From Neolewinella agarilytica (GTDB lineage: Bacteria > Bacteroidota > Bacteroidia > Chitinophagales > Saprospiraceae), in assembly GCF_900110645.1 (NCBI RefSeq), contig NZ_FOFB01000020.1, positions 62,001 to 126,000 of the forward strand: a stretch of DNA of 64,000 bases, written 5' to 3'. Positions 1 to 59,768 of this stretch are shown here, piece by piece; position 1 is the stretch's first letter; each line of letters starts with the position of its first letter. The notes beneath the pieces were generated by a model. The model had not been told where the DNA came from. It worked only from the letters and a program-made list of their open reading frames with translations, and made no database searches. The translations under genes were made by a program, and so were the position numbers.

Positions 1-2
1 AC

Positions 3-980
3 AGCCTTGGCTACCAGGAGCAGGTGTATGCCGCTTACGCCTCCATTAGCCACGAAATGGGATACCTGAGCTTTGAAGCCGGTTTGAGAGCAGAAGCTAC
101 CAGGACGGAAACCTACAGCTATAAGGTTGATGCGCGTGGAGGACAGTCTTACGAAAACCTTTTCCCGAACCTGGCCGTGAGCTACGCTCCTTCCGCTAAT
201 CACCAGTTCACCCTCAACTACAGTTCTTCGATTACACGCCCGAACTACCTGGAGCTGAACCCCTACGTTCGTTACCTGGACGCTTTCACCTTCACGACGG
301 GAAATAACGAATTGCTACCCGAAATTGACCACCGGCTAACGCTCAATACGCGTCTCTACCGACTGCTCTACCTGAACTTCGGTCTGATTCGTGGCCAGCG
401 TTACGTCGGCCAGGTCCGGGAACTAACGGAGGACGGGCTGACGACGAGTATCACCCCACAGAACGCCTTCAACGTCCGGGCGGGCTACGTTCAAGCCATC
501 ATTTACTACCAGTTCGGTAAAAATGAGAAAGTACAGGGCCAGTTGTCCTCACTGGTGGTGCCTCTCAATTATCTCCCACTCCCTGCTTTTGAAGATCAGG
601 CACAGTTCACGGGGTCAACCACTAAAGTCGTTCTTTCTGCCTCGACGCAGGTTAAGCTCACGGATCGTCTTACTATTGAGGGCGATTACCGATTTACCCG
701 CGGTAGGCTTTACTTCCAGCGGAGAAACCTGAATCAATGGGTGGCCAATGCTCAGCTGAGATACCGCTTACCTGGCGATGCCTTCACGCTGGCAGTAGGG
801 GCTACTGACCTGTTCAACAGTAATAATGCAGCAGGAGAGCGGTTTTTCACGGGCTTTGAGTCTGATTATGCTTCAGACTTTAATACCCGTCGCGTATCGA
901 TTGCCCTCAATTACCGCCTGGGTAAGCTGCGTAAAAACTACCGGCGAGGCCCGGAGGGCGACGTTGGTCGCTTCCAATAA
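3..980 (+). CDS. Outer-membrane beta-barrel protein, TonB-receptor-like (3' part only)
   Basis: The gene enters from the left edge already in frame (first full codon at 3) and stops at 978-980, so only the C-terminal part is visible. The translation has the alternating aromatic/polar strands of an outer-membrane barrel, with repeated stretches such as LNYRLG, YAAYASIS and TLNYSSSITRPNY. This matches the barrel half of the Bacteroidota 'outer membrane beta-barrel family' (TonB-dependent receptor relatives with a carboxypeptidase-like N-terminus). Its role is probably uptake or surface binding in the outer membrane, with unknown substrate. It runs in the same direction as the lanthipeptide genes but is separated from them by 206 bp and a hairpin, so it is probably a separate unit. 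Confidence 0.8.
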   Translation, partial: SLGYQEQVYAAYASISHEMGYLSFEAGLRAEATRTETYSYKVDARGGQSYENLFPNLAVSYAPSANHQFTLNYSSSITRPNYLELNPYVRYLDAFTFTTGNNELLPEIDHRLTLNTRLYRLLYLNFGLIRGQRYVGQVRELTEDGLTTSITPQNAFNVRAGYVQAIIYYQFGKNEKVQGQLSSLVVPLNYLPLPAFEDQAQFTGSTTKVVLSASTQVKLTDRLTIEGDYRFTRGRLYFQRRNLNQWVANAQLRYRLPGDAFTLAVGATDLFNSNNAAGERFFTGFESDYASDFNTRRVSIALNYRLGKLRKNYRRGPEGDVGRFQ

Positions 981-1186: not shown

Positions 1187-2344
1187 ATGTCTACGACGGT
1201 AACCGCGTTGGCAAATCAAGGGAGTCTGCCTCACCAGGACTCCGCGCTTACCCGGCGGCTATTCGAATTAGCCGAAAATATCGATCGATACGATACCGGC
1301 TTTGGCCTCAATGGAATAACGATGTTGGCGGTCTGCCGCTACCTCAATTCAGGAGCGTCAGCAGATTTGGCGATTGCGCAAAACCTTTGCCTTCAGGCTA
1401 TTGAAGGGGTGACCGACCCGCAACATACCGCAGCCGCTACCCTGGTTGAAATCAGTGAACTGGCTCAGTTTCTGGCTTCCCATGCTGAAACGCTGGAGCT
1501 GTCCGAAGCCGTTACTCCCTTACGCGAAATGCTGCACCAGATTTTGGTTAAGCGGATGAATATTTGCTTTGAAAAGCAGGAGCTGGATCCTTACACAGGA
1601 GGCTTTCAGCCCGCCTGGTATCTCCTGCTTTATGGCCCGGATTGTCACCAACACCTAAAGAGCTGGCTGGAAGCTTTACCCACCGTTGAAGCCCTCGCAG
1701 AGCGCCATGAAGATGGTACTTATAAAGTGGCCACCGGCCTGTCTCACGGCCTGGCTTTCTATGCGCTCTTTGTATGCAAAGTCTTGCAGCGCTGCCCTGA
1801 AGTCAGAGCATTTCAGCGGCGCGGGAAGGGCTATCTCAGAGCCTTACGGCGAAGATCGGTTTCCGCCCGCCGCTACGGTTGCTACTACCTGGAAGGTAAG
1901 GCGCGCGGACCGGGCCGCTTATGCCTGGCCTACGGAGATATGGGCATCCTTTATGCAGGTCTGCAGCTGGCGCGCTTGCTGGGCGAAACGGATGAAGTTG
2001 AATTCTTCACGGACGCTTTGCTCCACACGGCTGGCCGCCGTACGCCGGAAAATACTGCGATCACCAATAATAGCCTGCTTTATGGCCGGTCCGGTGCCTG
2101 GTTATTTTTCGATCATCTCAACAAGCTGACCGGCATCAATACGTTCGCCGAGACGGCTGCTTTTTGGCGGGCAGAAGCCATCGCCCATTATGATGATCAG
2201 CAGATAATTGAAGGCTTTGATCACTACGATTACCCCGCCATGCAACGTATCTCCCTCTTCGAGGGCCCGCAAGGCCCGTTGCTCGTTGACCTCGCTTTGC
2301 GCACTACTCCAACCTCTTTACAATCCACTTTTTACCTCCTCTAA
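1187..2344 (+). CDS. LanC-like protein lacking the zinc ligands
   Basis: A 385-residue protein with the (alpha,alpha)-barrel pattern of lanthipeptide cyclases. The family motifs can be lined up with the neighbouring intact LanC. GLSHG (184-188) corresponds to the AHG motif and keeps the conserved histidine H187. The WCYG motif reads LAYGD, with Ala at 248 where the first zinc Cys belongs. The CHG motif reads LYGRSG, with Leu298 and Tyr299 in place of the Cys-His ligands. All three zinc ligands are therefore gone, and metal-dependent thiol activation is unlikely. It may be a structural partner of the second LanC, a substrate-binding scaffold, or a decaying duplicate. The frame is open throughout and the next gene starts 2 bp after its stop, which argues for maintained translation. 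Start chosen at the ATG 1187; no Shine-Dalgarno is visible, as usual in this phylum. Confidence 0.78.
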   Translation: MSTTVTALANQGSLPHQDSALTRRLFELAENIDRYDTGFGLNGITMLAVCRYLNSGASADLAIAQNLCLQAIEGVTDPQHTAAATLVEISELAQFLASHAETLELSEAVTPLREMLHQILVKRMNICFEKQELDPYTGGFQPAWYLLLYGPDCHQHLKSWLEALPTVEALAERHEDGTYKVATGLSHGLAFYALFVCKVLQRCPEVRAFQRRGKGYLRALRRRSVSARRYGCYYLEGKARGPGRLCLAYGDMGILYAGLQLARLLGETDEVEFFTDALLHTAGRRTPENTAITNNSLLYGRSGAWLFFDHLNKLTGINTFAETAAFWRAEAIAHYDDQQIIEGFDHYDYPAMQRISLFEGPQGPLLVDLALRTTPTSLQSTFYLL

Positions 2345-2346
2345 TC

Positions 2347-3570
2347 ATGCTTACCGAAACACGCTCCATTCCGGCTATCGATAGATTTTATGAACGATTT
2401 AAGGGAAACCTTGAGGAATATGGCTCCAGCTTCTTCAACGGCCTTAGTGGCGCTGCTTTGATCAGTGCTTATTTGGGCGCGGACGTAGATGCAAGGTTTG
2501 CTTCTCTGAGCGAGCAATTATTGTCTGAGGTAATGGAGCGCCTCCGGGCCGGAGACCTGAAGCTATCTACTCTGCATACTTTTTGCTCCGGCCTGGCGGG
2601 AATCGTCTACGTCGTTGATCACCTTCGGGAAAATGGACTGGCGGACAACCGCTTTGACGAGGCTACGATGGCAGAGCTGAGTGACTTGTTCAAAGAGCGG
2701 GCTATGGCTGATTTTAAAAAGCAAAATACCGACTATTTGCACGGGCCACTCGGCGTTTTCTTCGCCCTGCTTCCCCACGCTCACCTGCCAGCGGTGCAAA
2801 ATACACTGGATACCATCTTTGATACTTATTTGGGGCAGTTGCGTACGGATGAGAAAGGTAGTCGGATATTCAACAGCGTCCTGCAGGGGCAACTTGACAG
2901 CGGAGAGTACAACATGGGCCTTGCGCACGGTATGACGGGACATGCCCTGCTTTGGACCGAGGCCTGCCGCCGTGGTTTCCGTCAGGAATCAACCCGCCAG
3001 CTGGTGTACGACCTTTTGAAGTATGTAGATAAGCATGAGCGTCCGGCGGGAGCTAAGAAATCTCCCACCCACGTCTTTTATCCCAAGTCTGTTATCGAAG
3101 ACAATCCCGAAGTATGGGCTGAAAAAGAAGAAGAGAACTACGTCAGCCGGGTAGGGTGGTGCTACGGAGATTTGAACGTCGCCTTTGCCCAGTTGAAGGC
3201 AGGCCGCACCTTCAGCGATGAAGAACTGGAGCAACGTGGCCTTGCCCTTGCCCGCCACGTTGCGGGGCGCCTGGATGCTTATGACGCCCAGATCGATGAA
3301 AACGTATTCTTCTGCCACGGCTCTGCCGGGCTGGTGTACATGTTCGGTTGCCTGAAAAAGACTTACCCCGCTGAACTGGCCTTCAACCGTGCCTATGAGC
3401 GGTGGGCTGATCACTACCGGACCACCTGGGAGAACCCTCGCTACGACGAACTCAAGGGATATCAGCACTTCTCTCTGCTGGAAGGATTACCCGGAGCTGT
3501 TTTAGGTACGCTCAGCCTGGATCGCCCGGGCCTCCTGCCTGCCGCTGACGCTTTCTTACTCAACCTGTAA
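2347..3570 (+). CDS. Lanthionine synthetase C family protein (class I LanC cyclase)
   Basis: A 407-residue LanC. All hallmark motifs are intact: GLAHG (191-195, H194), GWCYGD (270-275, zinc ligand C272) and FFCHGSAGL (321-329, ligands C323 and H324). In class I systems LanC catalyses Michael addition of cysteine thiols onto dehydroalanine/dehydrobutyrine made by LanB, forming lanthionine rings in the cytoplasm. The start is 2 bp after the stop of the degenerate LanC-like gene and the flavin enzyme follows 10 bp after its own stop, so it sits inside one operon. Length and motif spacing are normal for the family. It is very likely the catalytic cyclase of the locus. Confidence 0.92.
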   Translation: MLTETRSIPAIDRFYERFKGNLEEYGSSFFNGLSGAALISAYLGADVDARFASLSEQLLSEVMERLRAGDLKLSTLHTFCSGLAGIVYVVDHLRENGLADNRFDEATMAELSDLFKERAMADFKKQNTDYLHGPLGVFFALLPHAHLPAVQNTLDTIFDTYLGQLRTDEKGSRIFNSVLQGQLDSGEYNMGLAHGMTGHALLWTEACRRGFRQESTRQLVYDLLKYVDKHERPAGAKKSPTHVFYPKSVIEDNPEVWAEKEEENYVSRVGWCYGDLNVAFAQLKAGRTFSDEELEQRGLALARHVAGRLDAYDAQIDENVFFCHGSAGLVYMFGCLKKTYPAELAFNRAYERWADHYRTTWENPRYDELKGYQHFSLLEGLPGAVLGTLSLDRPGLLPAADAFLLNL

Positions 3571-3580
3571 ACCATTAATT

Positions 3581-4540
3581 ATGAACCGCCTCTCCTTCGG
3601 CATACTGGAATTCGGTAATCGCCATAGCGACCAAAGCAGTATGCATACCATACTGGATGTGCTTGACTTTGCTGAATTAGCAGAGCAAAAAGGCTTTTCC
3701 CGGTTTTGGCTGACGGAGCATCACGTTTATAATCCTTTGATCGGTTGGGCCAGCCCCAGAATGCTTTTGCCACTCATCCTGCAGCAAACCGAGCGCATCC
3801 ATGTCGGTACCGCAGGCGTGCTGATGAACTTTCATTCTCCGTATCAGGTGGCCCTTGATTTCCGCTTGTTGGCTAACCTTTTTCCCGGTCGCTGTGATCT
3901 GGGGTTCGCGAATGGCCGCCCGTCCCCTAATATCGGTCAACAGATGAGGTGTGAGCAGTTTTCCCGTTACCCCGATGATTTTGAATTTCGGGTCAACCGG
4001 GTGGCACGGTTGTTCGGCGAAGAAGAATCGGTTCTCCGCAAGGAGCAAACCATCATCCCCCCTGCTTTCGGATCTACACCAGACTTGTACGCATTGGGGA
4101 GTTCTTTCCGCCGCAATGAGTGGGCTGTCAATAACCAAATGCATATGGTGAAGTCTACCTTTCATACGCTCGATAGTATGGATTTTGATGAGTACGATGT
4201 CATTGCCCGCTACCGGGATGAATTCGCCCGTAAGCACGGCTACACTCCACACGCTGTCATCGCCCTGGCAGGCTCTTGTGTCCCTGATGAAACGACGCGT
4301 AAACAGGTGGATGAGCAGATGAAAAAAATCAACTACGGCCGGCCCATCGTCAACAGTATTGTTGCCACCCCTGACGAGTTCCAGGAGCGGGTATGGGCCA
4401 TCGCAAAACGCTACGGCGTCTCCGAATTTGTCTTGCGTGAAGTTGGTCAGCACAGTGATCAGCAACAAGAAAGTATTGGACTCATCAGTAAGTCATTTGG
4501 TCTGTTGGCCAGCCAACCAGCACAGCGCATTACTGTGTAA
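3581..4540 (+). CDS. LLM-class flavin-dependent oxidoreductase
   Basis: A 319-residue luciferase-like monooxygenase-fold enzyme. The N-terminal region LSFGILEFGNR, the WLTEHH signature and the strand RIHVGTAGVLMNFHSPYQVA are typical of this TIM-barrel family, which uses FMN or F420. Family members are either monooxygenases or reductases. Some members encoded in lanthipeptide clusters (the LanJC group) reduce dehydroalanine/dehydrobutyrine to D-amino acids, so reduction of LanB products is the contextual guess. Bacteroidota are not known generally for F420, so FMN would be the more likely cofactor. It lies between lanC and lanB with 10- and 20-bp spacers. The substrate assignment is inference; the fold assignment is firm. 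Confidence 0.85.
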   Translation: MNRLSFGILEFGNRHSDQSSMHTILDVLDFAELAEQKGFSRFWLTEHHVYNPLIGWASPRMLLPLILQQTERIHVGTAGVLMNFHSPYQVALDFRLLANLFPGRCDLGFANGRPSPNIGQQMRCEQFSRYPDDFEFRVNRVARLFGEEESVLRKEQTIIPPAFGSTPDLYALGSSFRRNEWAVNNQMHMVKSTFHTLDSMDFDEYDVIARYRDEFARKHGYTPHAVIALAGSCVPDETTRKQVDEQMKKINYGRPIVNSIVATPDEFQERVWAIAKRYGVSEFVLREVGQHSDQQQESIGLISKSFGLLASQPAQRITV

Positions 4541-4560
4541 AACCTAAAAATCAAGCTATC

Positions 4561-7500
4561 ATGTTGAAGTTTACCGATAAATACATTTACCGCATTGCCC
4601 GGATGCCCCGGAATAATTTTTCTGGCCAGGCCCATTTCGATAATCGACTGGATTTCTTGAAAAAGGAATTAAGTAAGACGGAAGTCCAGGAAGCTATCTA
4701 TCTGTCCAGCCCTGAGTTTTTTAAGGAGGTAGAGCGTTTTCTGATCGGAGAGCTAACCATGGCTGCCGGTCCTAAGAAATGGAATAAGTTTCAGGTAACT
4801 GCGCTCAAGTATCTCAATCGCATCAGCTACCGACCCACACCTTTTGGCATGTTTGCGGGCTGTGGAGTAGGTAAAGTCATGGATTCTTCAGCACTTGAAG
4901 CAGCGCCTACTGCTCCGACTTTCCGGCGGGAAATAAAACTGGACGCTGCTTACCTTATGCTGCTAAGCAATGGCCTGTTGAAAATTCCCGGAATCAACGC
5001 TGTGCTAAAGTTCTTTCCCAATAACACCATACTTGAAGTTGGGGCAAAGTCTCGATACGTAGAGTACAGTGATACTGATCACGGCCGGGCCTATAATCTG
5101 TCGGTTTTTTCCAACTCAGAATACCTCGACCGCGTTCGGCAAGCAGCCGTTGGTGGTGCGACCGGTTTAGAGATTGCTGAAGTATTAGTCGATGAAGACA
5201 TTACGGTAGCAGATGCGCTCGGGTTTGTATCAGAGTTGGTTGATGCAAAAATCCTCGTCAGTGAGTTAGAGCCGCACGTCGTCGGTAACCCCTTCCAGGA
5301 TCAATTGGAAAGCGTATTGACGGCGCTGCTTCAGAGACGGGAACTTACCGATGAAGTAGCGGTTGAAGTACGGAAGTTTTACGGTCACCTTCAGCACCTG
5401 ATTGAACTGATGGAAGCTGCTTCTGAAACCGGGAGTATTGCCAGCTACCGGGCCATCGAAAATCTTGTAGCTGCGTTTCAGGGTAAACCATACCCCAACG
5501 TTATCCGGCTTGATGCAGAAGTCAGAAATGAAGTGGCGCCCCGACTGGATTTTCAAATGGCGCGGAAGGTTCAAAAAGGACTCCGGGCACTCATTAAGCT
5601 GTGCCGTTACCAGTCCAGCCGAAGCATCGTTGACTTCCGAAACAAATTCTCAGCCCGATACGAAGAGCAGTTGGTGCCGGTCATGCTGGCATTAGATCCT
5701 GAGTTGGGGGTCGGCTTTGAAAAGGTCGGTTCCGAGCAATTCACCTTTACGCCATTAGTAGATAATCTCCCGATGGTGCCGCGCCTGGGTAGCAACAAGC
5801 GGAAGAAGGTGGAATGGAACTATAAATTGCATAACTTTCTTTTACAAAAGATGATCAGCTGCCAGGTTGAGGGGAAGCGCGTACTTCAGCTAACGGATGA
5901 AGACCTGGATGGCTTCCACTATGAAATGAGCCATGTTCCACCAACATCGGCAGCGATGTTCAGCGTCGTTCAGGAGGAAGGGGCTGATGAGCCACTCTAC
6001 TGCTTTAAAGACCTGGGCAAAGACACCGGGGCTGCACTGCTGTCTCGCTTCGCCCACATGTCTGGTGAGATCAAAGAGGTGGTCGATGATTTGTGCAACT
6101 TTGAGGAGGAGTCTTTCGCGGGGAGCGTCGTAGCAGAGATTAACCACCTGGCTAACTTACGGGTAGGCAATATCACGGAACGCCCCCGAAGCCGGAAGCA
6201 CGAAATTGCTTTCATTACCAAATCGAACAGTGATGAGGGCGGTCTCATCCCCATCACTGATCTTTATGTTGGTGTCAGAAATAATCGGGTCGTATTAGTT
6301 AGCAAAAAGCTCGGGAAGGAAATCATCCCCCGGGTTTCTACAGCCCATAATTATGCCTGGAACTGCCTGCCGCTATATAAATTCCTGGCATCTCTTCAGG
6401 AAGAATACCACGGTGGTTACTATGAATACCTGGTGGACCTGGGGCCAATTACGGGTATGCTGGACTTCGTTCCACGGATTCAATATGAACGCTTTGTCTT
6501 CCGTCGTGCCAGCTGGAATATTCTCACGCAACCGATAAAGAACCTGAAGGAATTACCCTTTGCGGATATGACCGTAAAGCTCAGGGAACTCTTTAAAGAA
6601 AACAATTGGCCAACTCGCTTTACCCTTCGTGATGGAGACGCGCCAGTGTACGTAGATCTGCAAAACGATCATTCCATTTACCTCTTCATCAATATGTTGA
6701 AAGGATACCGGATGATCATCGAGGAGGTAATCGAGAAACCCACGGATGCACACTGGTTTAACGACGGTGCTGGCGCCCATTACCAACATGAAGTGATGTT
6801 ACCCTTCCGCAATGAGACTTTCCTGAATCGGAAAGCGAAGCCTGTACCCGCGATAATAGAAACAGAGGATACGCTGCCTCGTGTTGTCTATCCTTCGGAT
6901 GAATGGCTTTACCTCAAGTTTTACGGAGGCGCCGGCACTATCGAAAAACTGGTCGGCGAAAAATTCCCACTCTTAATTAAAGGTCTGGCGGACCAGGGCC
7001 TCATCACCAGCTTCTTCTTCCTGCGTTTGACGGACCCGGATTACCATCTGCGCGTCAGGTTTAAACCTTCGAACTACGCTGCCATCGGTGAGATCCTGCG
7101 CCAGGTAAACGAATTTTTCAAACCCGAGCTTGAACACCAGTTTATCTGGAAAATTCAGGTCGATACCTACCGACGGGAACTTGAGCGCTACGCAGGCCCC
7201 AACCTGGCGGCCGGTGAGGCACTCTTTGCCGTCGATAGCAAGATGGTAATGTCCGTCAAGAACCTTCTGGTCAGTGAGGTGCAAAAGGATCTGGAATGGC
7301 TGGTTATGCTCAGCGTAATGAACATTTACCTGGAGGTGTTTGGCCTAAAGGATGCCGATGCCCGGGCATTCCTGAAAGAAAGACGTGAAACCTTCAGCTA
7401 TCTGTTCAACACGAACAAGTTACAGAAACGGGATCTCGTTCAACGATACCTCAATCATCGCCCGCAGATTGAAGAAGCGTTACAACATAATCGTTACCCA

Positions 7501-7755
7501 TTTGAACAAGAGGCTCTGCTGCATTCAATTCTGGCAGAATTCAAAGACGAGCTCACCACTGTCTATGATGAAGGGATTGCTCCCCTGGATAAAGACCTCC
7601 GCGCTGAACTACTGCAGAGCTATGTCCACATGTTCATCCTGCGCTTCTCTCGTGCGAAGAACAAAATTCACGAGCACGTTCTCTTCTTCATCCTTGAGCG
7701 CTACTACCTGCAGGAAGCAGGCAAAAAGCGCAAGTCTGTCCCTCAACTCAAGTAA
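4561..7755 (+). CDS. Lantibiotic dehydratase (full-length class I LanB)
   Basis: A 1064-residue LanB. The first part (about 20-720) is the tRNA-Glu-dependent glutamylation domain, including the motif RISYRPTPFGMFAGCGVG (about residues 88-105), a hallmark of the family. From about residue 780 (EWLYLKFYGG) to the end is the SpaB_C/thiopeptide-type elimination domain, with TSFFFLRLTDPDYHLRVRF near residue 820. Full-length LanB glutamylates Ser/Thr side chains of a precursor peptide and eliminates glutamate to give dehydro residues, which LanC then cyclises. The two-domain length is normal and no frameshift is visible. It is followed 14 bp later by the exporter gene. No precursor peptide gene is evident nearby. 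Confidence 0.93.
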   Translation: MLKFTDKYIYRIARMPRNNFSGQAHFDNRLDFLKKELSKTEVQEAIYLSSPEFFKEVERFLIGELTMAAGPKKWNKFQVTALKYLNRISYRPTPFGMFAGCGVGKVMDSSALEAAPTAPTFRREIKLDAAYLMLLSNGLLKIPGINAVLKFFPNNTILEVGAKSRYVEYSDTDHGRAYNLSVFSNSEYLDRVRQAAVGGATGLEIAEVLVDEDITVADALGFVSELVDAKILVSELEPHVVGNPFQDQLESVLTALLQRRELTDEVAVEVRKFYGHLQHLIELMEAASETGSIASYRAIENLVAAFQGKPYPNVIRLDAEVRNEVAPRLDFQMARKVQKGLRALIKLCRYQSSRSIVDFRNKFSARYEEQLVPVMLALDPELGVGFEKVGSEQFTFTPLVDNLPMVPRLGSNKRKKVEWNYKLHNFLLQKMISCQVEGKRVLQLTDEDLDGFHYEMSHVPPTSAAMFSVVQEEGADEPLYCFKDLGKDTGAALLSRFAHMSGEIKEVVDDLCNFEEESFAGSVVAEINHLANLRVGNITERPRSRKHEIAFITKSNSDEGGLIPITDLYVGVRNNRVVLVSKKLGKEIIPRVSTAHNYAWNCLPLYKFLASLQEEYHGGYYEYLVDLGPITGMLDFVPRIQYERFVFRRASWNILTQPIKNLKELPFADMTVKLRELFKENNWPTRFTLRDGDAPVYVDLQNDHSIYLFINMLKGYRMIIEEVIEKPTDAHWFNDGAGAHYQHEVMLPFRNETFLNRKAKPVPAIIETEDTLPRVVYPSDEWLYLKFYGGAGTIEKLVGEKFPLLIKGLADQGLITSFFFLRLTDPDYHLRVRFKPSNYAAIGEILRQVNEFFKPELEHQFIWKIQVDTYRRELERYAGPNLAAGEALFAVDSKMVMSVKNLLVSEVQKDLEWLVMLSVMNIYLEVFGLKDADARAFLKERRETFSYLFNTNKLQKRDLVQRYLNHRPQIEEALQHNRYPFEQEALLHSILAEFKDELTTVYDEGIAPLDKDLRAELLQSYVHMFILRFSRAKNKIHEHVLFFILERYYLQEAGKKRKSVPQLK

Positions 7756-7769
7756 GCACAGGATCCATT

Positions 7770-9971
7770 ATGTTTTATCAACCCTTTCCCTTCGTCCGCC
7801 AGAAAAACATGCGCGACTGCGGCATTGCAGCCCTGCGCATGATCGCTTCCTATCACGGTGTCCGGGTAGATGAATACCGCCTTCGCCAGCTTACCCGAAT
7901 TGACCGCGTAGGCACCTCGTTCAGCTCTCTGCGCAACGCCGCAGCAGAATATGGTATGAAAGCCGAAGGTGTCTTGCTCCGTAACCTCGACGACCTGGAC
8001 CTTATTGATGAGGATCGCCCGGCTATCCTGTTGGTCAACAACAACCACTTTGTGGTCTATTACGGTAAGCGTTACGGCAGGTACGTCATAGGTGATCCCG
8101 CCCGGGGGCGCCGCTGGCTCTCCGCCAGTACGCTGGCCGCTAAGTTGCTTACCCACGAAACACCGCATGATACCCCTCCCGTCGGCTATGCTTTACTCTT
8201 TGAGCCCCAGGCTTCCGAAGAGCCCGGGCTAAACCTCGTGGCTGACGTGGAAGTGACCGACCGCCGTTGGGAGGTTATTCGCAATAGCCTCGGTAGCGCA
8301 AAAGTCTTCTTTCCCGTCATCCTGTTGGGCATCCTCGCCATCTCAGCGGTGCAATACCTGCTGCCTTATGTTACCAAGCTTGTCGTCGACCTGGGCATTG
8401 GAGCGGGCGACCTGGCTTTCGTGCAATATCTGCTTGTGGGCCAACTTGTGCTGGTGTTGAGTAAAACAGGCTTCAATATCATCAGAGGCTGGCTGGTGCT
8501 CCACCTGAGCCTCCGGATCAACTTTCGCCTGATCTCCAGCTTCCTCACCAAGCTCTTCGCCCTTCCCATTCCGTTTTTCGAAACCCGAAGGGTAGGAGAC
8601 ATCCTCCAACGGATACGAGACCACAGCAGGGTGGAGTCCTTCCTGACCCAAAACGCACTATCGATCCTCATTTCCGTGATTACAGTCGTGATTTATAGCG
8701 TCGTGCTCCTGAACTTTCATCCACTTTTCTTTCAGTTATTCCTGGCTTCCTCCTTTGTCTATCTGGTCTGGATAACCTTCTTTCTGCGTAAACGGAAGAC
8801 CATTGACCTGGAGCGTTTTCAATATGCTTCCACGGATCAATCACTCGTCCTGCAAATCCTCAACGGAATGCACGACCTCAAGATCAACAACAGCCAACAG
8901 TTCTTCCATGATAAGTGGAAGGAGAATAAGATGGAATCTTTCGGTAATACCGCCCGCTTCCTGCGCATCAATCAGATTCAGGATACGGGTACAATGCTGA
9001 TCATTGAGATCGCCCAACTCTCCATTCTTTTCTTGTCCGCCAGTCTTATCATTGATAACCAGATTACGCTGGGAACACTGCTGTCCATCCAGTTTATTAT
9101 CGGACAACTCATCTCCCCAATGGAGCAAATAGTCTCCGGAGTGATCAGAGGACAGGAAGCAATGATCAGCCTGGACCGGATTACCGAGTTCTGGCAGGAA
9201 CGGGATGAGGCAGAGTATGGAGAGGGCCAACAACTCCTGCCCGGCCAACATAGCATCGAGATCAAAGGGCTGAACTTTACCCACCAGGGACAGCATCGAA
9301 AAGCAACCCTGGAGGACATCAATCTCAACATCCCCGTCGGAAAGTCTACCGCTATTGTAGGAGCCAGCGGCAGTGGAAAAACGACCCTGCTGAAACTTCT
9401 CTTGGGTTATTACCAGAATTATAAAGGCCTGGTGTCCGTAGGCCAACAAGATTTTCGACAGCTCGATCTGGAAGACTGGCGGCAACGCTGTGGAGTTATC
9501 CTGCAAGAAAGCTTCATCTTCAATGAAACGATTCGCGGCAATATCGTGCTGGGGCGGGAATACGATGAAGAGCGCTTCAAGATAGCTGCCAGCATTACTA
9601 ATCTCGAAGAATTTGTGGGAGAAATGCCACAGGGCTACCTCACCCCCGTCGGACGAGATGGTAAGGGCTTAAGCATGGGCCAGAAACAACGAATTTTGAT
9701 GGCTCGTGCCGTCTACAAAGATCCTGAGTATGTATTGATGGACGAAGCCACCAATAGCCTGGATGCCGAAAACGAGCGGAACATTATGGAAGCCCTGCAG
9801 CGCTTCTTTCACGGGCGAACGGTAATCATTGTCGCCCACCGCCTGAGCACCATTCAGTTTGCTGACAATATCATCGTCCTGCACAAAGGCCGGGTTGCCG
9901 AACAAGGTAGCCATGAAGAGCTACTGGCTCGTCGGGGCCGATACTTCGAACTGATCAAAAAACAGATGTAA
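7770..9971 (+). CDS. Peptidase-domain ABC exporter (C39 peptidase, LanT-like PCAT)
   Basis: A 733-residue single-chain peptidase-containing ABC transporter. Residues 1-135 form a C39 double-glycine peptidase with Q11, catalytic C17 in MRDCGIAAL, H93 in NNHFVVYY and D109 in IGDPARG. About 160-440 is the six-helix membrane domain. The nucleotide-binding domain follows from about 485, with Walker A GASGSGKTT (about 531), signature LSMGQKQR (about 634, Met-Gly instead of Gly-Gly) and Walker B VLMDEAT (about 655). Such proteins cut leader peptides after GG/GA and export the mature peptide across the inner membrane. An intact peptidase triad implies a leader-bearing substrate exists somewhere in the genome. 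The next gene starts 2 bp after its stop. Confidence 0.93.
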   Translation: MFYQPFPFVRQKNMRDCGIAALRMIASYHGVRVDEYRLRQLTRIDRVGTSFSSLRNAAAEYGMKAEGVLLRNLDDLDLIDEDRPAILLVNNNHFVVYYGKRYGRYVIGDPARGRRWLSASTLAAKLLTHETPHDTPPVGYALLFEPQASEEPGLNLVADVEVTDRRWEVIRNSLGSAKVFFPVILLGILAISAVQYLLPYVTKLVVDLGIGAGDLAFVQYLLVGQLVLVLSKTGFNIIRGWLVLHLSLRINFRLISSFLTKLFALPIPFFETRRVGDILQRIRDHSRVESFLTQNALSILISVITVVIYSVVLLNFHPLFFQLFLASSFVYLVWITFFLRKRKTIDLERFQYASTDQSLVLQILNGMHDLKINNSQQFFHDKWKENKMESFGNTARFLRINQIQDTGTMLIIEIAQLSILFLSASLIIDNQITLGTLLSIQFIIGQLISPMEQIVSGVIRGQEAMISLDRITEFWQERDEAEYGEGQQLLPGQHSIEIKGLNFTHQGQHRKATLEDINLNIPVGKSTAIVGASGSGKTTLLKLLLGYYQNYKGLVSVGQQDFRQLDLEDWRQRCGVILQESFIFNETIRGNIVLGREYDEERFKIAASITNLEEFVGEMPQGYLTPVGRDGKGLSMGQKQRILMARAVYKDPEYVLMDEATNSLDAENERNIMEALQRFFHGRTVIIVAHRLSTIQFADNIIVLHKGRVAEQGSHEELLARRGRYFELIKKQM

Positions 9972-9973
9972 TC

Positions 9974-10378
9974 ATGAACGTTGAAAAACTCCCCGTATGG
10001 CTATTGTCCTTCGCCACTTTTGTTTTTCTGGGGGCGGGGCTTGGGCTGTATCTCTTGTTAACTTTCTACAAGCCAGCCATTCCATCGCCCATTGCCGTAT
10101 CCACCCTGCCGATGGAACAGGAGAACGCTTACCTGCTCTCCGCCCGGGATGCATTGTTGGACCTGGAGCCCGATCAGACTCTGTCCTTCAAAACATATCA
10201 GAACAGCGCACCCCGCTACTTCAGGATAGCAGAATATTCTCCCACGGGAGAGGCGGGTGTTTTTAAAATTGTCTTTTCCGCAGAAAACGGTGCTCCACTA
10301 CCAGAAGAGGTAGAGAGTGGGTTTATCCACCTCCGGCAACCCATTAAAAAAGGCTTACTGGAAACAATGATGCATTAA
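9974..10378 (+). CDS. Small single-pass membrane protein, last gene of the lanthipeptide operon
   Basis: A 134-residue protein I do not recognise. Residues about 8-31 (LPVWLLSFATFVFLGAG and on) form one membrane helix. The rest is a roughly 100-residue soluble domain with beta-strand-like segments (TLSFKTY, YFRIAEYS, VFKIVFSAE). It contains no cysteine, so it is not the precursor. Start is 2 bp after the exporter stop, implying translational coupling. It resembles in size and topology a truncated HlyD-type periplasmic adaptor anchored by its N-terminus, but no HlyD motif can be shown. A role in export or immunity is inference from position only. Confidence 0.75.
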   Translation: MNVEKLPVWLLSFATFVFLGAGLGLYLLLTFYKPAIPSPIAVSTLPMEQENAYLLSARDALLDLEPDQTLSFKTYQNSAPRYFRIAEYSPTGEAGVFKIVFSAENGAPLPEEVESGFIHLRQPIKKGLLETMMH

Positions 10379-10399
10379 TGCTCTGTGCCAGGCGGAACG

Positions 10400-11731
10400 T
10401 TACCGCCTCCGCTGCTTGCCCATCATCTGTCCCATGGCCGGGTTGTTACTCATCTTGTGCATCATCTTACGCATCTGGTCGAACTGCTTGATGAAACGGT
10501 TGACGTCGTCCATGCTCTGACCACAACCGCGGGCAATCCGCTTTTTGCGGCTCATGCTCATGAGTTCAGGGTTGGCGCGTTCCTTGGGTGTCATCGACTG
10601 GATGATGGCTTCTACCTTGGCAAAAGCAGAGTTGTCGATCTCTACGTCCTTCATCATCTTCTTCATACCGGGGATCATGTTGAGCAAGCTCTTGATGTCT
10701 CCCATTTTACGAAGCTGGTTGAGCTGCCCCAGGAAGTCATTGAAGTCGAACTTGTTCTTCTTCATTTTCTTCTCCAGGCGCTTGGCCTCTTCCTCGTCGA
10801 ACTGATCTTGTGCACGTTCTACGAAGGAGATGATGTCTCCCATACCCAGAATACGCTGGGCCATCCGGTCGGGGTGGAAAACGTCCATCTGATTCAGCTT
10901 CTCTCCGGTGGAGATAAACTTGATGGGCTTATTGACCGTGTATTTTACCGAGAGGGCGGCACCACCACGGGTGTCACCGTCTAGCTTAGTCAGCACGACT
11001 CCGTCGAAGTCCAGCCGGTCATTGAAGACTTTGGCCGTATTGACGGCATCCTGACCCGTCATCGAGTCAACGACGAAGAGCGTCTCGTTGGGGCTGATCG
11101 CTTCGCTGATGTCACTGATCTCCTGCATCATCTTCTCATCAACGGAAAGACGGCCGGCAGTATCGACGATAACAACATCGTACTTGTTATCCTGGGCGTG
11201 AGCGATTGCATTAAGGGCAATCTCTACGGGGTTCTTATTCTCAACTTCCTTGTAGATGCCTGCGCCTACCTGCTCAGAAAGGACGGTCAACTGATCAATG
11301 GCCGCGGGACGATAAACGTCACAGGCCGTAACGAGTACTTTCAGTTTACGCTTTTCCTTCAGGTGAAGAGCGAGTTTACCGGTAAAGGTCGTCTTACCAG
11401 AACCCTGCAGGCCCGCAATCAGCACTACGCCGGGCTTCCCGACTACATTAATGCCGGCGGCCTGCCCGCCCATCAGTTCGGCGAGTTCGTCCTGAACGAT
11501 CTTGACCATCAACTGGCCGGGCTTAACCGACTTCAGTACATTGTCCGTTCCGAGTGCTTTCTCTTTCACCTTTTCGGTGAACTCTTTAGCGATCTTATAA
11601 CTCACGTCAGCGCCTACTAAAGCCCGACGAATCTCTTTGAGACTCGTGGCGACATTGATTTCCGTTATTTTATTATCGCCGGTCAGGCTTTTAAACGCGC
11701 CCTCAAGGCGATCACTCAGATTATCGAACAT
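10400..11731 (-). CDS. ffh: Signal recognition particle protein Ffh
   Basis: A 443-residue SRP54-type GTPase. After the N domain (MFDNLSDRLEGAFKSLTG) comes the G domain with G1 loop GLQGSGKTT (107-115), a VDTAGR motif and TKLDGDTRGG. The C-terminal M domain is methionine-rich (LNMIPGMKKMMKD, SMSRKKRIARGCGQ) and binds 4.5S RNA and signal sequences. It targets nascent inner-membrane proteins co-translationally to FtsY/SecYEG; yidC lies 4.5 kb away. It converges on the lanthipeptide operon, ending 21 bp from it. A TAnnTTTG box at 11752-11759 on the minus strand is a plausible -7 element. Confidence 0.97.
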   Translation of the reverse strand: MFDNLSDRLEGAFKSLTGDNKITEINVATSLKEIRRALVGADVSYKIAKEFTEKVKEKALGTDNVLKSVKPGQLMVKIVQDELAELMGGQAAGINVVGKPGVVLIAGLQGSGKTTFTGKLALHLKEKRKLKVLVTACDVYRPAAIDQLTVLSEQVGAGIYKEVENKNPVEIALNAIAHAQDNKYDVVIVDTAGRLSVDEKMMQEISDISEAISPNETLFVVDSMTGQDAVNTAKVFNDRLDFDGVVLTKLDGDTRGGAALSVKYTVNKPIKFISTGEKLNQMDVFHPDRMAQRILGMGDIISFVERAQDQFDEEEAKRLEKKMKKNKFDFNDFLGQLNQLRKMGDIKSLLNMIPGMKKMMKDVEIDNSAFAKVEAIIQSMTPKERANPELMSMSRKKRIARGCGQSMDDVNRFIKQFDQMRKMMHKMSNNPAMGQMMGKQRRR

Positions 11732-14141: not shown

Positions 14142-14193
14142 CCACCAAGAGTTTAGATTGCTGAGGTTAACTTGAATTGACCTCGAGTTTTGC

Positions 14194-14231
14194 GGCCCCG
14201 CTTCCTTTATTGGAGGTGGGGTCGTTTTTTT
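14194..14231 (+). terminator. Intrinsic terminator after the H3TH gene
   Basis: A 12-bp stem with three G-U pairs (14194-14205 with 14212-14223) and a 6-nt loop is followed by GTTTTTTT. It sits 52 bp after the H3TH stop codon. Confidence 0.85.
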
Positions 14232-14379
14232 GGGTGCAGGTTGCAGGTTGTGAGTTGCAGGGGGCGAGTTGCAGGGTGCGAGTTGCAGGTTGTGAGTTGC
14301 AGGGGGCGAGTTGCAGGGTGCAGGGTGCAGGGTGTGAGTTGCAGGGGGCGAGTTGCAGGGTGCAGGTTGCGGGTGGGCG
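14232..14379 (+). repeat. G-rich tandem repeat, about 14-bp unit
   Basis: Roughly ten imperfect copies of GAGTTGCAGGGKGC (K is G or T) occur directly after the terminator, with a higher-order 42-bp periodicity of three unit variants. It lies wholly between the terminator and the hydrolase gene and carries open frames on both strands by composition only. The copy number probably varies between strains (inference). Confidence 0.85.
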
Positions 14380-14506
14380 TATCCGGCAGACTCGGTGTTT
14401 GGCTGCCGGACCGACATTTCGCAGGTCGAGCCATTACCTCTTCCGCGAAATGATCGATCCATCCGCTCGAAGGGCAACCTGGCACTACCCTGAGCGTTTT
14501 ATCCCC

Positions 14507-15295
14507 ATGAAATGGATCAAACGAATCGGAATCTTTTTCGGTGGACTGTATTTGCTTCTCTGCCTTCTTTTGTATGTCTTTCAGGACTCGCTCATCTTCC
14601 ACCCCCGTGCGTTGGCGGCGGAGCATAGCTACGGTAATTACGAAGAAAGCTGGATTGAACTGGAGGATGGGGACCGTTTACACGCCCTGCGTTTACGTGA
14701 TGAACCGGCCGAGGGGGTAATTCTCTATCTGCACGGTAATGTGGGGAACAATGGCCGAAGCCTCTACCAAACCAAATCAATCAGGGGGCTGGGCTACGAT
14801 CTGTTTCTGGTCGATTACCGGGGCTTCGGCAAAAGCGAAGGGGTAATTGACGATGAAAATGATATGACGAGCGATTTACAGGCGGTGTATGATGCGCTGA
14901 AGCAGGAATACGCAGAAGGCAACATCTTTATTGCTGGCTATTCATTGGGTTCTGGCCCGGCCTCTTATCTGGCCGCCAATAATTCTCCCGGAGGTGTATT
15001 ACTGGTCTCTCCCTACACCAGCCTTGTAGACATGAAAAACCGCTTCTTTTGGATGTTTCCTGATTTCCTGCTGAAGTATTCGTTAGATAATGCTGCTAAC
15101 CTGGCGGCCTCGAATTGCCCGGTCATTATCGTTCATGGGACGGATGATGAGTTGATTCCACTGGATATGGGAAAGGGGTTATCCCGTATTGATCCAACCC
15201 GGATCAGCCTGCTTGAACTGGATGGGGTAGGGCACCGGGGAGCGATATTGAATACTGCCATCAAAGAAGCTATGAACAAATTGCTGAAGCGTTGA
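14507..15295 (+). CDS. Alpha/beta hydrolase, membrane-anchored
   Basis: A 262-residue protein from the ATG at 14507. The open frame extends upstream only because it runs through the tandem repeat. Residues about 5-25 (IGIFFGGLYLLLCLLLYVF) are a membrane anchor. The fold shows the oxyanion motif YLHGNVGNNG, the nucleophile elbow GYSLGSGPA (Ser), an acid in VIIVHGTDDELIP and the catalytic His in GVGHRG. This is the architecture of the ABHD12/13-like and YqkD-like serine hydrolases, usually facing the periplasm, with lipid-ester or acyl substrates. The actual substrate cannot be read from sequence. No operon partner is apparent, and a gene-free region of nearly 1 kb follows. Confidence 0.88.
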   Translation: MKWIKRIGIFFGGLYLLLCLLLYVFQDSLIFHPRALAAEHSYGNYEESWIELEDGDRLHALRLRDEPAEGVILYLHGNVGNNGRSLYQTKSIRGLGYDLFLVDYRGFGKSEGVIDDENDMTSDLQAVYDALKQEYAEGNIFIAGYSLGSGPASYLAANNSPGGVLLVSPYTSLVDMKNRFFWMFPDFLLKYSLDNAANLAASNCPVIIVHGTDDELIPLDMGKGLSRIDPTRISLLELDGVGHRGAILNTAIKEAMNKLLKR

Positions 15296-16255: not shown

Positions 16256-18151
16256 ATGGAGATGGACAGAAGTACCATCGTTGGTTTGGTCCTCATTCTT
16301 ATCATTTTTGCCGTCTGGCAAACAGTGGTAGCCCCAAGCCCCGAAGAGTTAGAAGCTCAACAGCGCTACCAGGATTCCATCACGGCGCTCAATGAAGCGA
16401 CGCTGACACCTGAAGCGGACATCGCGCCGGAGTTTACCCCCACTGAATTGGCAGGACTGACGGACTCCGCCCGCCAGGCAAAGTTCGGCAATGCTTTTGG
16501 TCCGTTTGCGGCCTCTGCTGCGGGCGAAGCCAAAGAGGTGGTCGTAGAAAACGACCTCATGATCGTTACGCTGAACACGAAAGGGGGGAACATCAAGCGC
16601 GTAGAACTGAAGGAATACGCCAAAATGATCGAAGGTGAAGAAGGCAAGATGGTCAAGCTGCCTCTTTATCTGATGGAAGACGAGAAGAACCGCTTCGAGT
16701 ATACCTTGCCGGTAAACGGTGTTTCGGGAGCCGGTATCAATACCAGCGACCTGTACTTTACCCCTAAAGTGGAAGGGCAGACCGTCATCATGCGGGCACC
16801 TACTTCTAACGGAGGCTATTTCGAGCAGCGGTATTCACTGAAAGACGGGACCTACCTGATGGATTATGATCTCCGTTTTGAGGGGCTCAACCAGGTTTTG
16901 GTTAATCAGGGAGGAAATATCCAGCTGCAGTGGGATAACTACCTGGACAAAATCGAGAGAAACAGCCAGTATGAGTCGACTTTGTCGACGATGTACTTCA
17001 AGCCTACGGACGACGATTCTGACTACTGTTCCTGTACCAGCACGGACTCGGAAACAGTTGATGGTCAAAGCCTCAAATGGGTAGCAGGCTCTCAGCAGTT
17101 CTTTACTTCAGCTTTGCTGGCTGACAATTCCTTCTCGCCGGGTAGCGTACTGGCGACCGAGGTTTTTGATCTGGAGACCAGCCCCGACTTAGAGAAAGTA
17201 TCCGCTACGCTCAACATTCCGGTAGGAAATTCTAACTCGGAAGCCGTTGGTATGCAGCTTTACGTAGGGCCTAATGAGTTTGATCGCCTGCGGGCCATTG
17301 GCCATGACCTTAGCGACGTAATCAGCTTCGGGCGCTCCATTTTCGGTGGTATCAACCGCTGGATCATTCGTCCACTTTTTGGCTTCCTGTCTAAGTATAT
17401 CAGCAATATGGGGATCGCCATTCTCGTGCTTACCCTGATTGTAAAACTGCTGGTATATCCGCTTACTTATAAGATGCTGGTGAGCAACGTGAAAATGCAG
17501 GTGCTTAAGCCCGAACTGGAAAAGATGAAGGCCAAGCACAAAGATGATGCACAGGCCCAACAGATGGAACAGATGAAGATGTACCAGGAATACGGGGCAA
17601 GTCCGTTGGGGGGCTGTCTGCCGATGGTTCTGCAGATGCCCATCTGGTTTGCACTTTACCGGTTTTTCCCCGCTTCCATTGAGTTCCGCCAGGAGAGTTT
17701 CCTGTGGGCGAATGACCTGAGTACTTACGACGTGCTGACGAAAATCCCGGATTGGATTCCCTTCATGCAGGGCCACATCAGCTTATTCGCAGTGCTTTGG
17801 GCCATCACGACGGTGATCTACGCTTACTACAACAGCAGGCACATGGACTACAGTGCACAGCCCATGATGAAGTACTTTCAGTACGTAATGCCCATTTTGT
17901 TTCTTGGGTTCTTCAACAGCTTCGCTGCCGGACTTACCGCATATCTCTTCTTCTCCAATACCTTCAATATCGCTCAGACGATTATAACGAAGAACTTCCT
18001 TATTGACCACGATAAGTTGAAGGCAAAAATGGAAGAAAACCGGAAGAAGCCTAAGAAGAAAAGTGGTTTCAGTGCCAGACTACAGGAAGCATTGAAAGAG
18101 CAACAACGGCAACAGGCTGCACAAAACGGTACCAAAAAGAAGGGGAAGTAA
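16256..18151 (+). CDS. yidC: Membrane protein insertase YidC
   Basis: A 631-residue YidC of the gram-negative type. The N-terminal helix is RSTIVGLVLILIIFAVWQ (about 4-22). A large periplasmic domain with beta-rich segments extends to about residue 345. The conserved insertase core has helices GIAILVLTLIVKLLVYPLT and LGGCLPMVLQMPIWFALY and further helices near 505-570. The C-terminus is Lys/Arg-rich (KKPKKKSGF), as expected for ribosome contact. It inserts and folds inner-membrane proteins alone or with Sec. Start could also be the ATG at 16262 (MDRSTIVG), which matches family N-termini slightly better. An 8-bp stem overlaps the stop codon (18138-18160). Confidence 0.97.
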   Translation: MEMDRSTIVGLVLILIIFAVWQTVVAPSPEELEAQQRYQDSITALNEATLTPEADIAPEFTPTELAGLTDSARQAKFGNAFGPFAASAAGEAKEVVVENDLMIVTLNTKGGNIKRVELKEYAKMIEGEEGKMVKLPLYLMEDEKNRFEYTLPVNGVSGAGINTSDLYFTPKVEGQTVIMRAPTSNGGYFEQRYSLKDGTYLMDYDLRFEGLNQVLVNQGGNIQLQWDNYLDKIERNSQYESTLSTMYFKPTDDDSDYCSCTSTDSETVDGQSLKWVAGSQQFFTSALLADNSFSPGSVLATEVFDLETSPDLEKVSATLNIPVGNSNSEAVGMQLYVGPNEFDRLRAIGHDLSDVISFGRSIFGGINRWIIRPLFGFLSKYISNMGIAILVLTLIVKLLVYPLTYKMLVSNVKMQVLKPELEKMKAKHKDDAQAQQMEQMKMYQEYGASPLGGCLPMVLQMPIWFALYRFFPASIEFRQESFLWANDLSTYDVLTKIPDWIPFMQGHISLFAVLWAITTVIYAYYNSRHMDYSAQPMMKYFQYVMPILFLGFFNSFAAGLTAYLFFSNTFNIAQTIITKNFLIDHDKLKAKMEENRKKPKKKSGFSARLQEALKEQQRQQAAQNGTKKKGK

Positions 18152-59673: not shown

Positions 59674-59768
59674 TTAATGCTGAATCATGTTGTGACTTCG
59701 AACAAATAGGTACGTCTACTCTTTAGTAGTGTAGGAAATAGTTCCTGTACCAAAAATGTTAGTTAACC

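What the first reader, a model, noticed from the sequence alone, without database searches (positions are those of the whole stretch)
1187..10378. Complete class I lanthipeptide-type machinery with no precursor gene beside it
Seen directly: six genes with 2-20 bp spacing encode two LanC-like proteins, an LLM flavin enzyme, full-length LanB, a C39 exporter with intact Cys/His/Asp, and a small membrane protein. I searched the flanking gaps and intergenic spacers for a short leader-GG-Cys/Ser/Thr-rich frame and found none that convinces. An intact leader peptidase implies that a substrate exists elsewhere in the genome.
Basis: partly seen in the sequence, partly recalled or inferred. Interest (0 to 1): 0.65.

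Follow-up and report, generated by a model that had tools for sequence, protein, structure and literature searches.

The report
Lanthipeptide cluster with metal-free cyclase homologue
The six genes do belong to a modified-peptide (lanthipeptide) factory, its four peptide genes lie just outside the window, and one of its two ring-closing proteins belongs to a widespread relative that has lost the zinc site thought to be needed for ring closure.

Summary
The six-gene operon at 1187-10378 is real. "No precursor beside it" is a window-edge artefact: four class I lanthipeptide precursor genes lie on the same strand and contig, 1.7-2.9 kb before the window's first base. One outer-membrane barrel gene separates them from the operon. 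Two congeners repeat the layout. All 11 precursors found in the three species carry SCC-x-[KR]-[ST]-C; 10 of 11 leaders fit LxLxKx5L exactly.

What remains of interest: the first "LanC" has lost every zinc ligand but keeps the residues proposed to handle the dehydroalanine and enolate. Its 'xYG' group of 11 proteins has one supported origin (98/97, ligand columns removed) and spans five Bacteroidota families; another pair lost zinc separately. In two near-complete genomes with a LanB cluster a search found no zinc-type LanC-like protein. Zinc-free cyclases are known from class III LanKC; ten searches of an open-access library showed no stand-alone one in LanB clusters. A core motif C-x3-[ST]-C tracks the LLM flavin enzyme (10 of 11 loci against 3 of 31). 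Function is inferred, not shown.

The parts
1..980 (+). 3' part of the outer-membrane beta-barrel gene (about 811 aa in all, starting about 1.46 kb before the window) that lies between the four precursor genes and the operon
   Evidence: PF14905 OMP_b-brl_3 E 3.8e-46; frame open across the window edge; gene in the same place in both congeners, 50 and 62% identical over the last 318 aa; in L015 it ends 5 bp before the next gene. The four LanA genes themselves lie outside the window at L008 17134-17340, 17397-17600, 17779-17973, 18106-18300 = C43:59134-60300
1187..2344 (+). zinc-less LanC-like protein ('xYG' type: LAYGD / LLYGR in place of WCYGD / FFCHG)
   Evidence: LANC_like 22.8 bits; Cys284->Ala, Cys330->Leu, His331->Tyr, with Asp141, His212 and Tyr285 kept; model pTM 0.79, Z 26.5 to nisin cyclase
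2347..3570 (+). canonical zinc-type LanC cyclase
   Evidence: LANC_like E 9.5e-31; WCYG, CHG and the His212 equivalent align with NisC 2g02
3581..4540 (+). LLM (luciferase-like) flavin enzyme, candidate LanJC-type dehydroamino acid reductase
   Evidence: PF00296 E 9.2e-20; groups with 12 LLMs of other LanB loci apart from seven genomic LLM rows (two of them identical) and L105's, support 89/88, not starred
4561..7755 (+). full-length LanB dehydratase
   Evidence: PF04738 E 3.5e-107 and PF14028 E 2.8e-46, both at near full length; the only PF04738 match in the genome at E up to 0.01
7770..9971 (+). C39 peptidase-containing ABC exporter (LanT / PCAT type)
   Evidence: PF03412, PF00664, PF00005; 64 and 70% identical in the two congeners
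9974..10378 (+). 134-aa protein with one N-terminal transmembrane helix; possible reduced membrane-fusion protein (inference)
   Evidence: no Pfam family; same place and 30% identity in congener L014; helix 8-31 is the only confident part of the model, mean pLDDT 48.5; HlyD_3 proteins stand at this place in L090 (425 aa) and L088 (242 aa), while the proteins at this place in L087, L103 and L108 match no family

Best explanation
This is a complete multi-precursor class I lanthipeptide cluster of a Lewinella-like bacterium, and the window edge cuts off its precursor genes. Inferred working: four LanA peptides are dehydrated by LanB at Ser/Thr of the C-terminal SCCxK[ST]C segment. The zinc LanC and the zinc-less xYG LanC-like protein close (or help to close) the small thioether rings. 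The LLM enzyme reduces or otherwise modifies a residue in the C-x3-[ST]-C segment, a motif that goes with the LLM gene across clusters. The C39 exporter cuts after GG/GA and exports the peptide, and the small membrane protein and the outer-membrane barrel serve passage through the envelope. Shown: gene content, conserved layout, leader and core motifs, loss and retention of active-site residues, motif-LLM association. Inferred: every enzymatic step. For the xYG protein I think a metal-independent cyclase function (alone, or for one of two rings) more likely than a purely structural role, about 55 to 45.
For: Four NF038153 (class I lanthipeptide leader) hits above cut-off, E 8.1e-8 to 2.0e-4, on C43 just upstream; nothing else in the genome reaches the cut-off. 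Same layout precursors-OMP-xYG-LanC-LLM-LanB-C39-small protein in Lewinella sp. W8 and MAG Co_bin.246. 11 of 11 precursors carry SCC-x-[KR]-[ST]-C. 13 zinc-less proteins: Tyr for His331 and no Cys330 in 13 of 13, His212 kept in 13, Asp141 in 11, Tyr285 in 11. One supported origin for 11 of the 13. In genomes G142 and G346 (completeness 100 and 99%) the only PF05147 matches at E up to 0.001 are zinc-less, beside LanB, LLM, C39 and Ser/Cys precursors. The LanC toroid fold is kept. C-x3-[ST]-C occurs in 10 of 11 LLM loci with candidate precursors and 3 of 31 others.
Against: No expression, mass or activity data. The xYG proteins might be scaffolds: in the window, L014, L015, L103 and L108 a zinc LanC stands beside them. 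In G142 and G346 the cysteines might stay free, form disulphides or react unaided. The core motif follows the LLM enzyme more than the xYG protein, so it does not by itself tie xYG to a given ring. One of the five L014 precursors (17511-17708) has no GG/GA site. The LLM reductase role rests only on class II precedent. L105, a LanB locus with an LLM ORF 2.8 kb away, groups with an ordinary genomic LLM, so neighbourhood alone can mislead.
Confidence: 0.85

Rival explanations
1. The operon is an orphan and its substrate is encoded far away in the genome.
For: Within the window NF038153 finds no precursor, even at E up to 10.
Against: Four above-cut-off precursors directly upstream on the same strand, and the same layout in two congeners; two further hits elsewhere (C49, C24) are below the cut-off, at 13.5 and 10.4 bits.
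Confidence: 0.02
2. The xYG LanC-like protein is a dead paralogue kept as scaffold, chaperone or leader binder for the LanB-LanC complex.
For: In the window and four related loci it stands next to an intact LanC; all or part of the zinc site is lost.
Against: His331 becomes Tyr in 13 of 13 and His212 stays in 13 of 13, unlike free decay; in two near-complete genomes zinc-less members are the only LanC-like proteins found; class III LanKC cyclises without zinc (PMC10604976, passages).
Confidence: 0.38
3. xYG is a partner of the LLM enzyme in a reduction (dehydroalanine to D-alanine), not a cyclase.
For: LLM stands near xYG in the window, L014, L015, L103, L108, L146 and L148; xYG keeps the enolate-handling residues and lacks the thiol-activating ones; the strict form SC-x3-[ST]-C was seen only in loci with both.
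Against: xYG occurs without an LLM in L094, L143 and L147 and LLM without xYG in L029, L087, L088, L090, L154; the two would have to share one active site.
Confidence: 0.12
4. The LLM enzyme is an oxygenase (S-oxidation or hydroxylation), not a reductase.
For: Its closest NCBIfam model is MsnO8-family LLM (TIGR03558, 139 bits, below the cut-off of 167).
Against: In the papers I saw, the one lanthipeptide LLM with a proposed role is a reductase, birimositide LanJC, from masses that fit Ser to D-Ala (PMC7268733, passages).
Confidence: 0.35

Closest known systems
Bacteroidota class I lanthipeptides with LxLxKx5L leader, GG site and C39 transporter (Walker et al. 2020, PMC7268733)
   Same: leader motif, GG/GA cut site, LanB + LanC + C39 exporter
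   Different: four precursors with SCC-x-K-[ST]-C; an extra zinc-less LanC-like protein; LLM enzyme; outer-membrane barrel inside the cluster. Their supplementary tables, not readable here, may hold such clusters
Class III LanKC cyclase domain, ThurKC (PMC10604976)
   Same: LanC toroid without the three zinc ligands (Z 18.9 to 8sap); a hydrophobic residue usually stands at position 330, as ThurKC Phe770
   Different: stand-alone protein without kinase or lyase domain, in a LanB cluster; Tyr instead of Asp at 331; keeps Asp141 and His212, which ThurKC replaces by Ser and Asp
Nisin cyclase NisC
   Same: fold (Z 26.5) and the Asp141/His212 acid-base pair
   Different: no zinc ligands in the window's first LanC-like protein
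LanJC (birimositide LLM reductase, class II; PMC7268733)
   Same: PF00296 enzyme in a lanthipeptide cluster
   Different: class I cluster in Bacteroidota; activity untested
Pinensin cluster (Chitinophaga pinensis)
   Same: class I lanthipeptide of Bacteroidota
   Different: pinensin has a split LanB (PMC7268733); here LanB is full length

Membership tests
Class I lanthipeptide cluster | LanB with glutamylation and elimination domains | tested here: met
   PF04738 and PF14028 at near full length in one ORF; single catalytic residues not checked
Class I lanthipeptide cluster | zinc-type LanC cyclase | tested here: met
   2347-3570: WCYG, CHG and His212 align with NisC
Class I lanthipeptide cluster | precursor with leader and Ser/Thr/Cys core nearby | tested here: met
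   four NF038153 hits above cut-off, cores with SCC-x-K-[ST]-C
Class I lanthipeptide cluster | (methyl)lanthionine in the product | not testable with these tools
   needs expression and mass spectrometry
Zinc-dependent LanC (window 1187-2344) | Cys284, Cys330, His331 ligands | tested here: not met
   Ala, Leu, Tyr in all three congeners
Class III LanKC synthetase (window 1187-2344) | lyase and kinase domains fused to the cyclase | tested here: not met
   385-aa protein; only LANC_like in Pfam at E up to 0.001; NF038151 14.4 bits against a cut-off of 575
Metal-independent cyclase by function (window 1187-2344) | closes thioether rings without metal | not testable with these tools
   inferred from residues and from genomes G142 and G346
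LanJC reductase | PF00296 LLM in a lanthipeptide cluster | tested here: met
LanJC reductase | reduces Dha/Dhb to D-amino acids | not testable with these tools
   no assay
Pinensin-type cluster | split LanB | tested here: not met
   full-length LanB
HlyD membrane-fusion protein (window 9974-10378) | HlyD domain match or fold | tested here: inconclusive
   no Pfam match, model unusable beyond one helix

The most novel reading that the evidence does not exclude
The xYG proteins are a clade of stand-alone, metal-independent LanC cyclases that work with LanB. They use Tyr331 in place of zinc and keep His212 (and mostly Asp141). In some Bacteroidota genomes zinc-less LanC-like proteins are the only candidates for ring closure and act on minimal cores such as SCVLLSC, where two Ser and two Cys could form two nested thioether rings. 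The LLM enzyme that goes with C-x3-[ST]-C cores would be a dedicated tailoring enzyme of that motif, for instance making D-alanine or D-aminobutyrate.
Probability: 0.4. Interest if true: 0.7.

Novelty: new variant of a known kind. Interest (0 to 1): 0.5.

Why it matters
The orphan claim falls, so no hunt for a distant substrate is needed. The zinc site of LanC is treated as essential outside class III. A LanB-associated LanC-like clade that has lost it, uniformly carries Tyr at one ligand position and keeps the enolate-handling half of the active site makes the question 'what does zinc do in LanC?' testable by natural variants. Genomes in which only zinc-less members were found, with a minimal two-Ser, two-Cys core, give a very small test system. 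The link between the LLM gene and a C-x3-[ST]-C core names the likely substrate segment of a class I LLM enzyme.

Tried and rejected
Considered and dropped: (1) orphan operon: refuted. (2) a precursor hidden inside the window: no NF038153 match there at E up to 10; the ORF 10378-10491 is antisense to the end of the Ffh-like gene at 10400-11731. (3) an inactive operon: all genes are open and conserved at 30-70% identity in two congeners. (4) one origin for all zinc-less LanC-like proteins: with 13 rows the tree needs two changes; L137 and L138 (SNSD type) lost zinc separately. (5) a shared LanB lineage for xYG/LLM clusters: not seen; the LanB tree scatters them (quick tree, weak deep branches). 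(6) the small membrane protein as HlyD: not shown. (7) L105 as an LLM cluster: its LLM groups with an ordinary genomic one. (8) My own first reading that the core motif goes with xYG: the general form C-x3-[ST]-C goes with the LLM gene instead. (9) The first genome-contig scan with the single LanB found no relative; the alignment query found three, two being congeners already held.

Limits: the motif counts use an automatic precursor filter that misses real precursors (in one search it took 3 of 5 in L014, 1 of 2 in L015, 0 in L029) and lets junk ORFs in, many of them in loci without xYG or LLM; the wider gate and the general motif were chosen, so the p-values are post hoc. The xYG set was partly found by searching with an xYG profile, so frequencies are not unbiased. 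The 46 'intact' rows were sorted by having the ligands, so their 46 of 46 is a definition, not a finding; two of them are identical. Rows left out of the residue counts and trees: L132-L135 (too distant), L119 and L139 (copies of window proteins), and six further LanC-like ORFs without CHG in L090, L091, L102 (cut), L158, L159 and L173; none of these six shows xYG. Of the 43 LanB places with E up to 3.6e-89, 37 were fetched, 3 were already held and 3 (G842:C4, G882:C10, G882:C5) were not fetched; neither were the weaker rows of that table.
Full report
OBSERVATION. The window is G000:C43:62001-126000 of a 6.22-Mb, 74-contig genome. Two genomes of the same genus, G015 and G018, have the same cluster; I take them to be Lewinella sp. 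W8 and MAG Co_bin.246, because contig lengths 320579 and 13400 agree. The organism is therefore probably Lewinella-like (Saprospirales in NCBI taxonomy); this is inference. The six ORFs and their 2-20-bp gaps are as described. Pfam assigns LANC_like twice (the first just below the cut-off), Bac_luciferase, both LanB domains, C39 plus ABC, and nothing for the last ORF.

PRECURSORS. A search of the genome with NCBIfam NF038153, the class I lanthipeptide leader model, gave six matches, four above its cut-off, all on C43 at 59146-60183, before window base 1. The sequence there holds four short plus-strand genes for 64-68 aa. Their leaders fit LxLxKx5L, described for Bacteroidetes class I precursors together with GG ends and C39 proteases by Walker et al. 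(PMC7268733; sections 6 and 8 and passages read). All four carry SCC-x-K-[ST]-C near the C-terminus. Between them and the operon lies one gene, for an OMP_b-brl_3 outer-membrane barrel, whose 3' part is window 1-980; its frame is open across the window edge.

CONSERVED LAYOUT. L014 (G015) has precursors-OMP-xYG-LanC-LLM-LanB-C39-small protein on one strand, with five precursors counting one (17511-17708) found by motif only and lacking a GG/GA site; L015 (G018, a 13.4-kb contig) has two precursors and the same order up to a cut small protein. Identity to the window: LanB 51-53%, C39 64-70%, LLM 60-62%, LanC 46-49%, xYG 39-42%, OMP 50-62% over the last 318 aa. In L015 the OMP gene ends 5 bp before the xYG gene, so it belongs to the cluster. 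Invariant over 11 precursors from three species: L7, L9, R16, L17, Q21, S54, C55, C56, C60, counted on the first sequence. The leader Lys (K11) is present in 10 of 11; the exception, L014:18532-18735, has Val there.

THE ZINC-LESS LanC. In all three species the first LanC-like protein reads LAYGD and LLYGR where the second reads WCYGD and FFCHG or YFCHG. The second aligns with NisC at all ligand positions. I collected 13 such proteins and set them against 46 rows sorted as intact (45 different). Zinc-less: Tyr at 331 in 13 of 13; Cys330 replaced in 13 of 13 (L 4, F 4, I, W, T, A, Y once each); Cys284 is A in 4, C in 4, S in 3, M and L once each; His212 kept in 13 of 13; Asp141 in 11 (Ser in 2); Tyr285 in 11 (Asn in 2). 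[quoted passage not shown] So the xYG proteins have lost the thiol half and kept the enolate half. This reading is mine.

ONE GROUP. A tree of 41 LanC-like proteins puts the seven xYG proteins then known on one side of a branch (100/97). With 59 rows the 13 zinc-less ones need two changes; the two extra (L137, L138, with SNSD in place of YGD) sit inside the intact group. With the ligand and acid-base columns dropped, 11 xYG proteins are again one side of a branch (98/97). They come from five families of the operators' numbering (f1, f20, f23, f24, f28). Several rows have long branches, and the root is a midpoint, so 'clade' depends on rooting.

FOLD. The AlphaFold2 model of the window protein (7-row alignment; pLDDT 74, pTM 0.79) matches NisC at Z 26.5 (3.5 A, 345 residues), the class I cyclase MadC at 26.1 and the class III ThurKC at 18.9.

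ZINC-FREE PRECEDENT. LanKC cyclase domains lack the zinc ligands and still cyclise; ThurKC has Ser, Phe, Asp at the three ligand positions and Ser, Asp for Asp141 and His212, and its F770A and D771A variants lose cyclisation (PMC10604976, passages). The xYG proteins share the loss but are stand-alone, stand beside LanB and keep His212.

ONLY ZINC-LESS MEMBERS. In the fetched stretches L094, L143, L146, L147 and L148 (20 kb each) the only LanC-like proteins near LanB are zinc-less. A PF05147 search of six genomes (E up to 0.001) found in G142 (completeness 100) three matches in two ORFs and in G346 (completeness 99) two matches, all of them the zinc-less proteins. G153, G224 and G865 have zinc-type ones at other places; G568 (89% complete) gave only the xYG one. 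G346's precursors have the core AQEGAAASCVLLSCNK[QT]Q.

CORE MOTIF. Candidate precursors were taken by an automatic filter. The strict form SC-x3-[ST]-C occurs in 5 of 9 xYG loci with candidates (6 of 10 with the window's own cluster) and in 0 of 27 loci without xYG (Fisher p 9e-5). With the three congeners counted once it is 4 of 8 (p 0.0013), with L146 and L148 (same genus) also once 3 of 7 (p 0.006). All strict hits are in loci that have an LLM as well. The general form C-x3-[ST]-C goes with the LLM gene rather than with xYG: 8 of 9 LLM loci against 2 of 27 others with the filter, and 10 of 11 against 3 of 31 with a gate that also takes AG ends (p 1.3e-5 and 2.0e-6); near relatives counted once, 7 of 8 (p 6e-5), and without L150, whose LLM is weak and distant, 6 of 7 (p 2e-4). 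For xYG the general form gives 6 of 9 against 7 of 33 (p 0.016). The LLM locus that does not fit is L108. These tests are post hoc. Eight of eight precursors tested, six of them from other loci, match NF038153 above cut-off.

LLM. Found by profile in LanB loci with xYG: the window, L014, L015, L103, L108, L146, L148; without: L029, L087, L088, L090, L154, and a weak, more distant one in L150. In the LanB-driven set of 40 places (37 fetched plus G000, G015, G056), 7 have an LLM, 5 an xYG protein and 4 both (own count, L105 left out). The LLMs of LanB loci group together (13 rows, 89/88, not starred) apart from seven genomic LLM rows, two of them identical; L105's does not join them. Birimositide's LLM is the precedent for a reductase (PMC7268733, passages). 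L108 also has a zinc-type alcohol dehydrogenase between LanB and C39; zinc-dependent dehydrogenases are the LanJA family (PMC7268733).

EXPORT. The C39 gene is followed in L090 by a 425-aa HlyD_3 protein and in L088 by a 242-aa one; in L087, L103 and L108 the protein at this place matches no family. The window's 134-aa protein stands there too but shows no sequence or usable structural match.

LITERATURE. Ten searches of an open-access library showed me no paper describing a stand-alone zinc-less LanC in LanB clusters or this cluster type; I judged most papers by listing only. Subscription papers are mostly missing, and supplementary tables could not be read, so this is weak evidence of novelty. 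Chryseobacterium and Runella class I peptides have been made in E. coli (PMC9993889, passages). LanC-like proteins of Bacteroidales without key residues and without LanB are described in PMC10352776 (passages), whose authors think them unlikely to belong to lanthipeptide clusters.

VERDICT. The orphan cluster is an artefact of the window edge; the cluster is an ordinary class I lanthipeptide cluster in outline, with an unusual, conserved zinc-less LanC partner and an LLM enzyme tied to a short core motif, both worth testing.

Noticed in passing
L008:17595-17780 (C43:59595-59780), between LanA2 and LanA3: A long-range hairpin (GCCGCCGTTCT...AGAACGGCGGC followed by TTTTAT); z-score -3.5 against shuffles. 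Possible terminator or attenuator inside the precursor array.
   Followed up: partly
L008:17779-18300, L014:18072-18507, L015:11682-13130: Two precursor types seem to recur in all three congeners: SCCSKSC without a long tail and SCCRKTCN with an acidic tail; window against L015 58-60% identical, against L014 41-52%. A two-component product is possible.
   Followed up: no
L146 (G142) and L148 (G346): LanB clusters with two zinc-less LanC-like proteins and an LLM; no zinc-type LanC-like protein was found in either near-complete genome.
   Followed up: yes
L029, L088, L090, L150, L154 (LLM loci without xYG): Candidate precursors of these loci carry C-x3-[ST]-C too (for example C-SHW-TC in L029), so the motif follows the LLM gene.
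   Followed up: partly
L108:7001-8134: Zinc-type alcohol dehydrogenase (family of LanJA) between LanB and C39, in a cluster that also has an LLM and an xYG protein.
   Followed up: no
L090:11850-13754: A 634-aa protein with an N-terminal LANC_like domain next to LanB, besides a normal LanC; it keeps the Asp141 and His212 equivalents but has other residues at the zinc ligands.
   Followed up: partly
window 14177-15295: The N-terminal part of this ORF is made of repeats of GCELQGASCRV, probably a DNA tandem repeat rather than protein.
   Followed up: no
L015:12107-12748: A 213-aa protein beginning like a lipoprotein, without a Pfam family at E up to 0.01, between the two precursor genes; immunity is one possibility.
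   Followed up: partly
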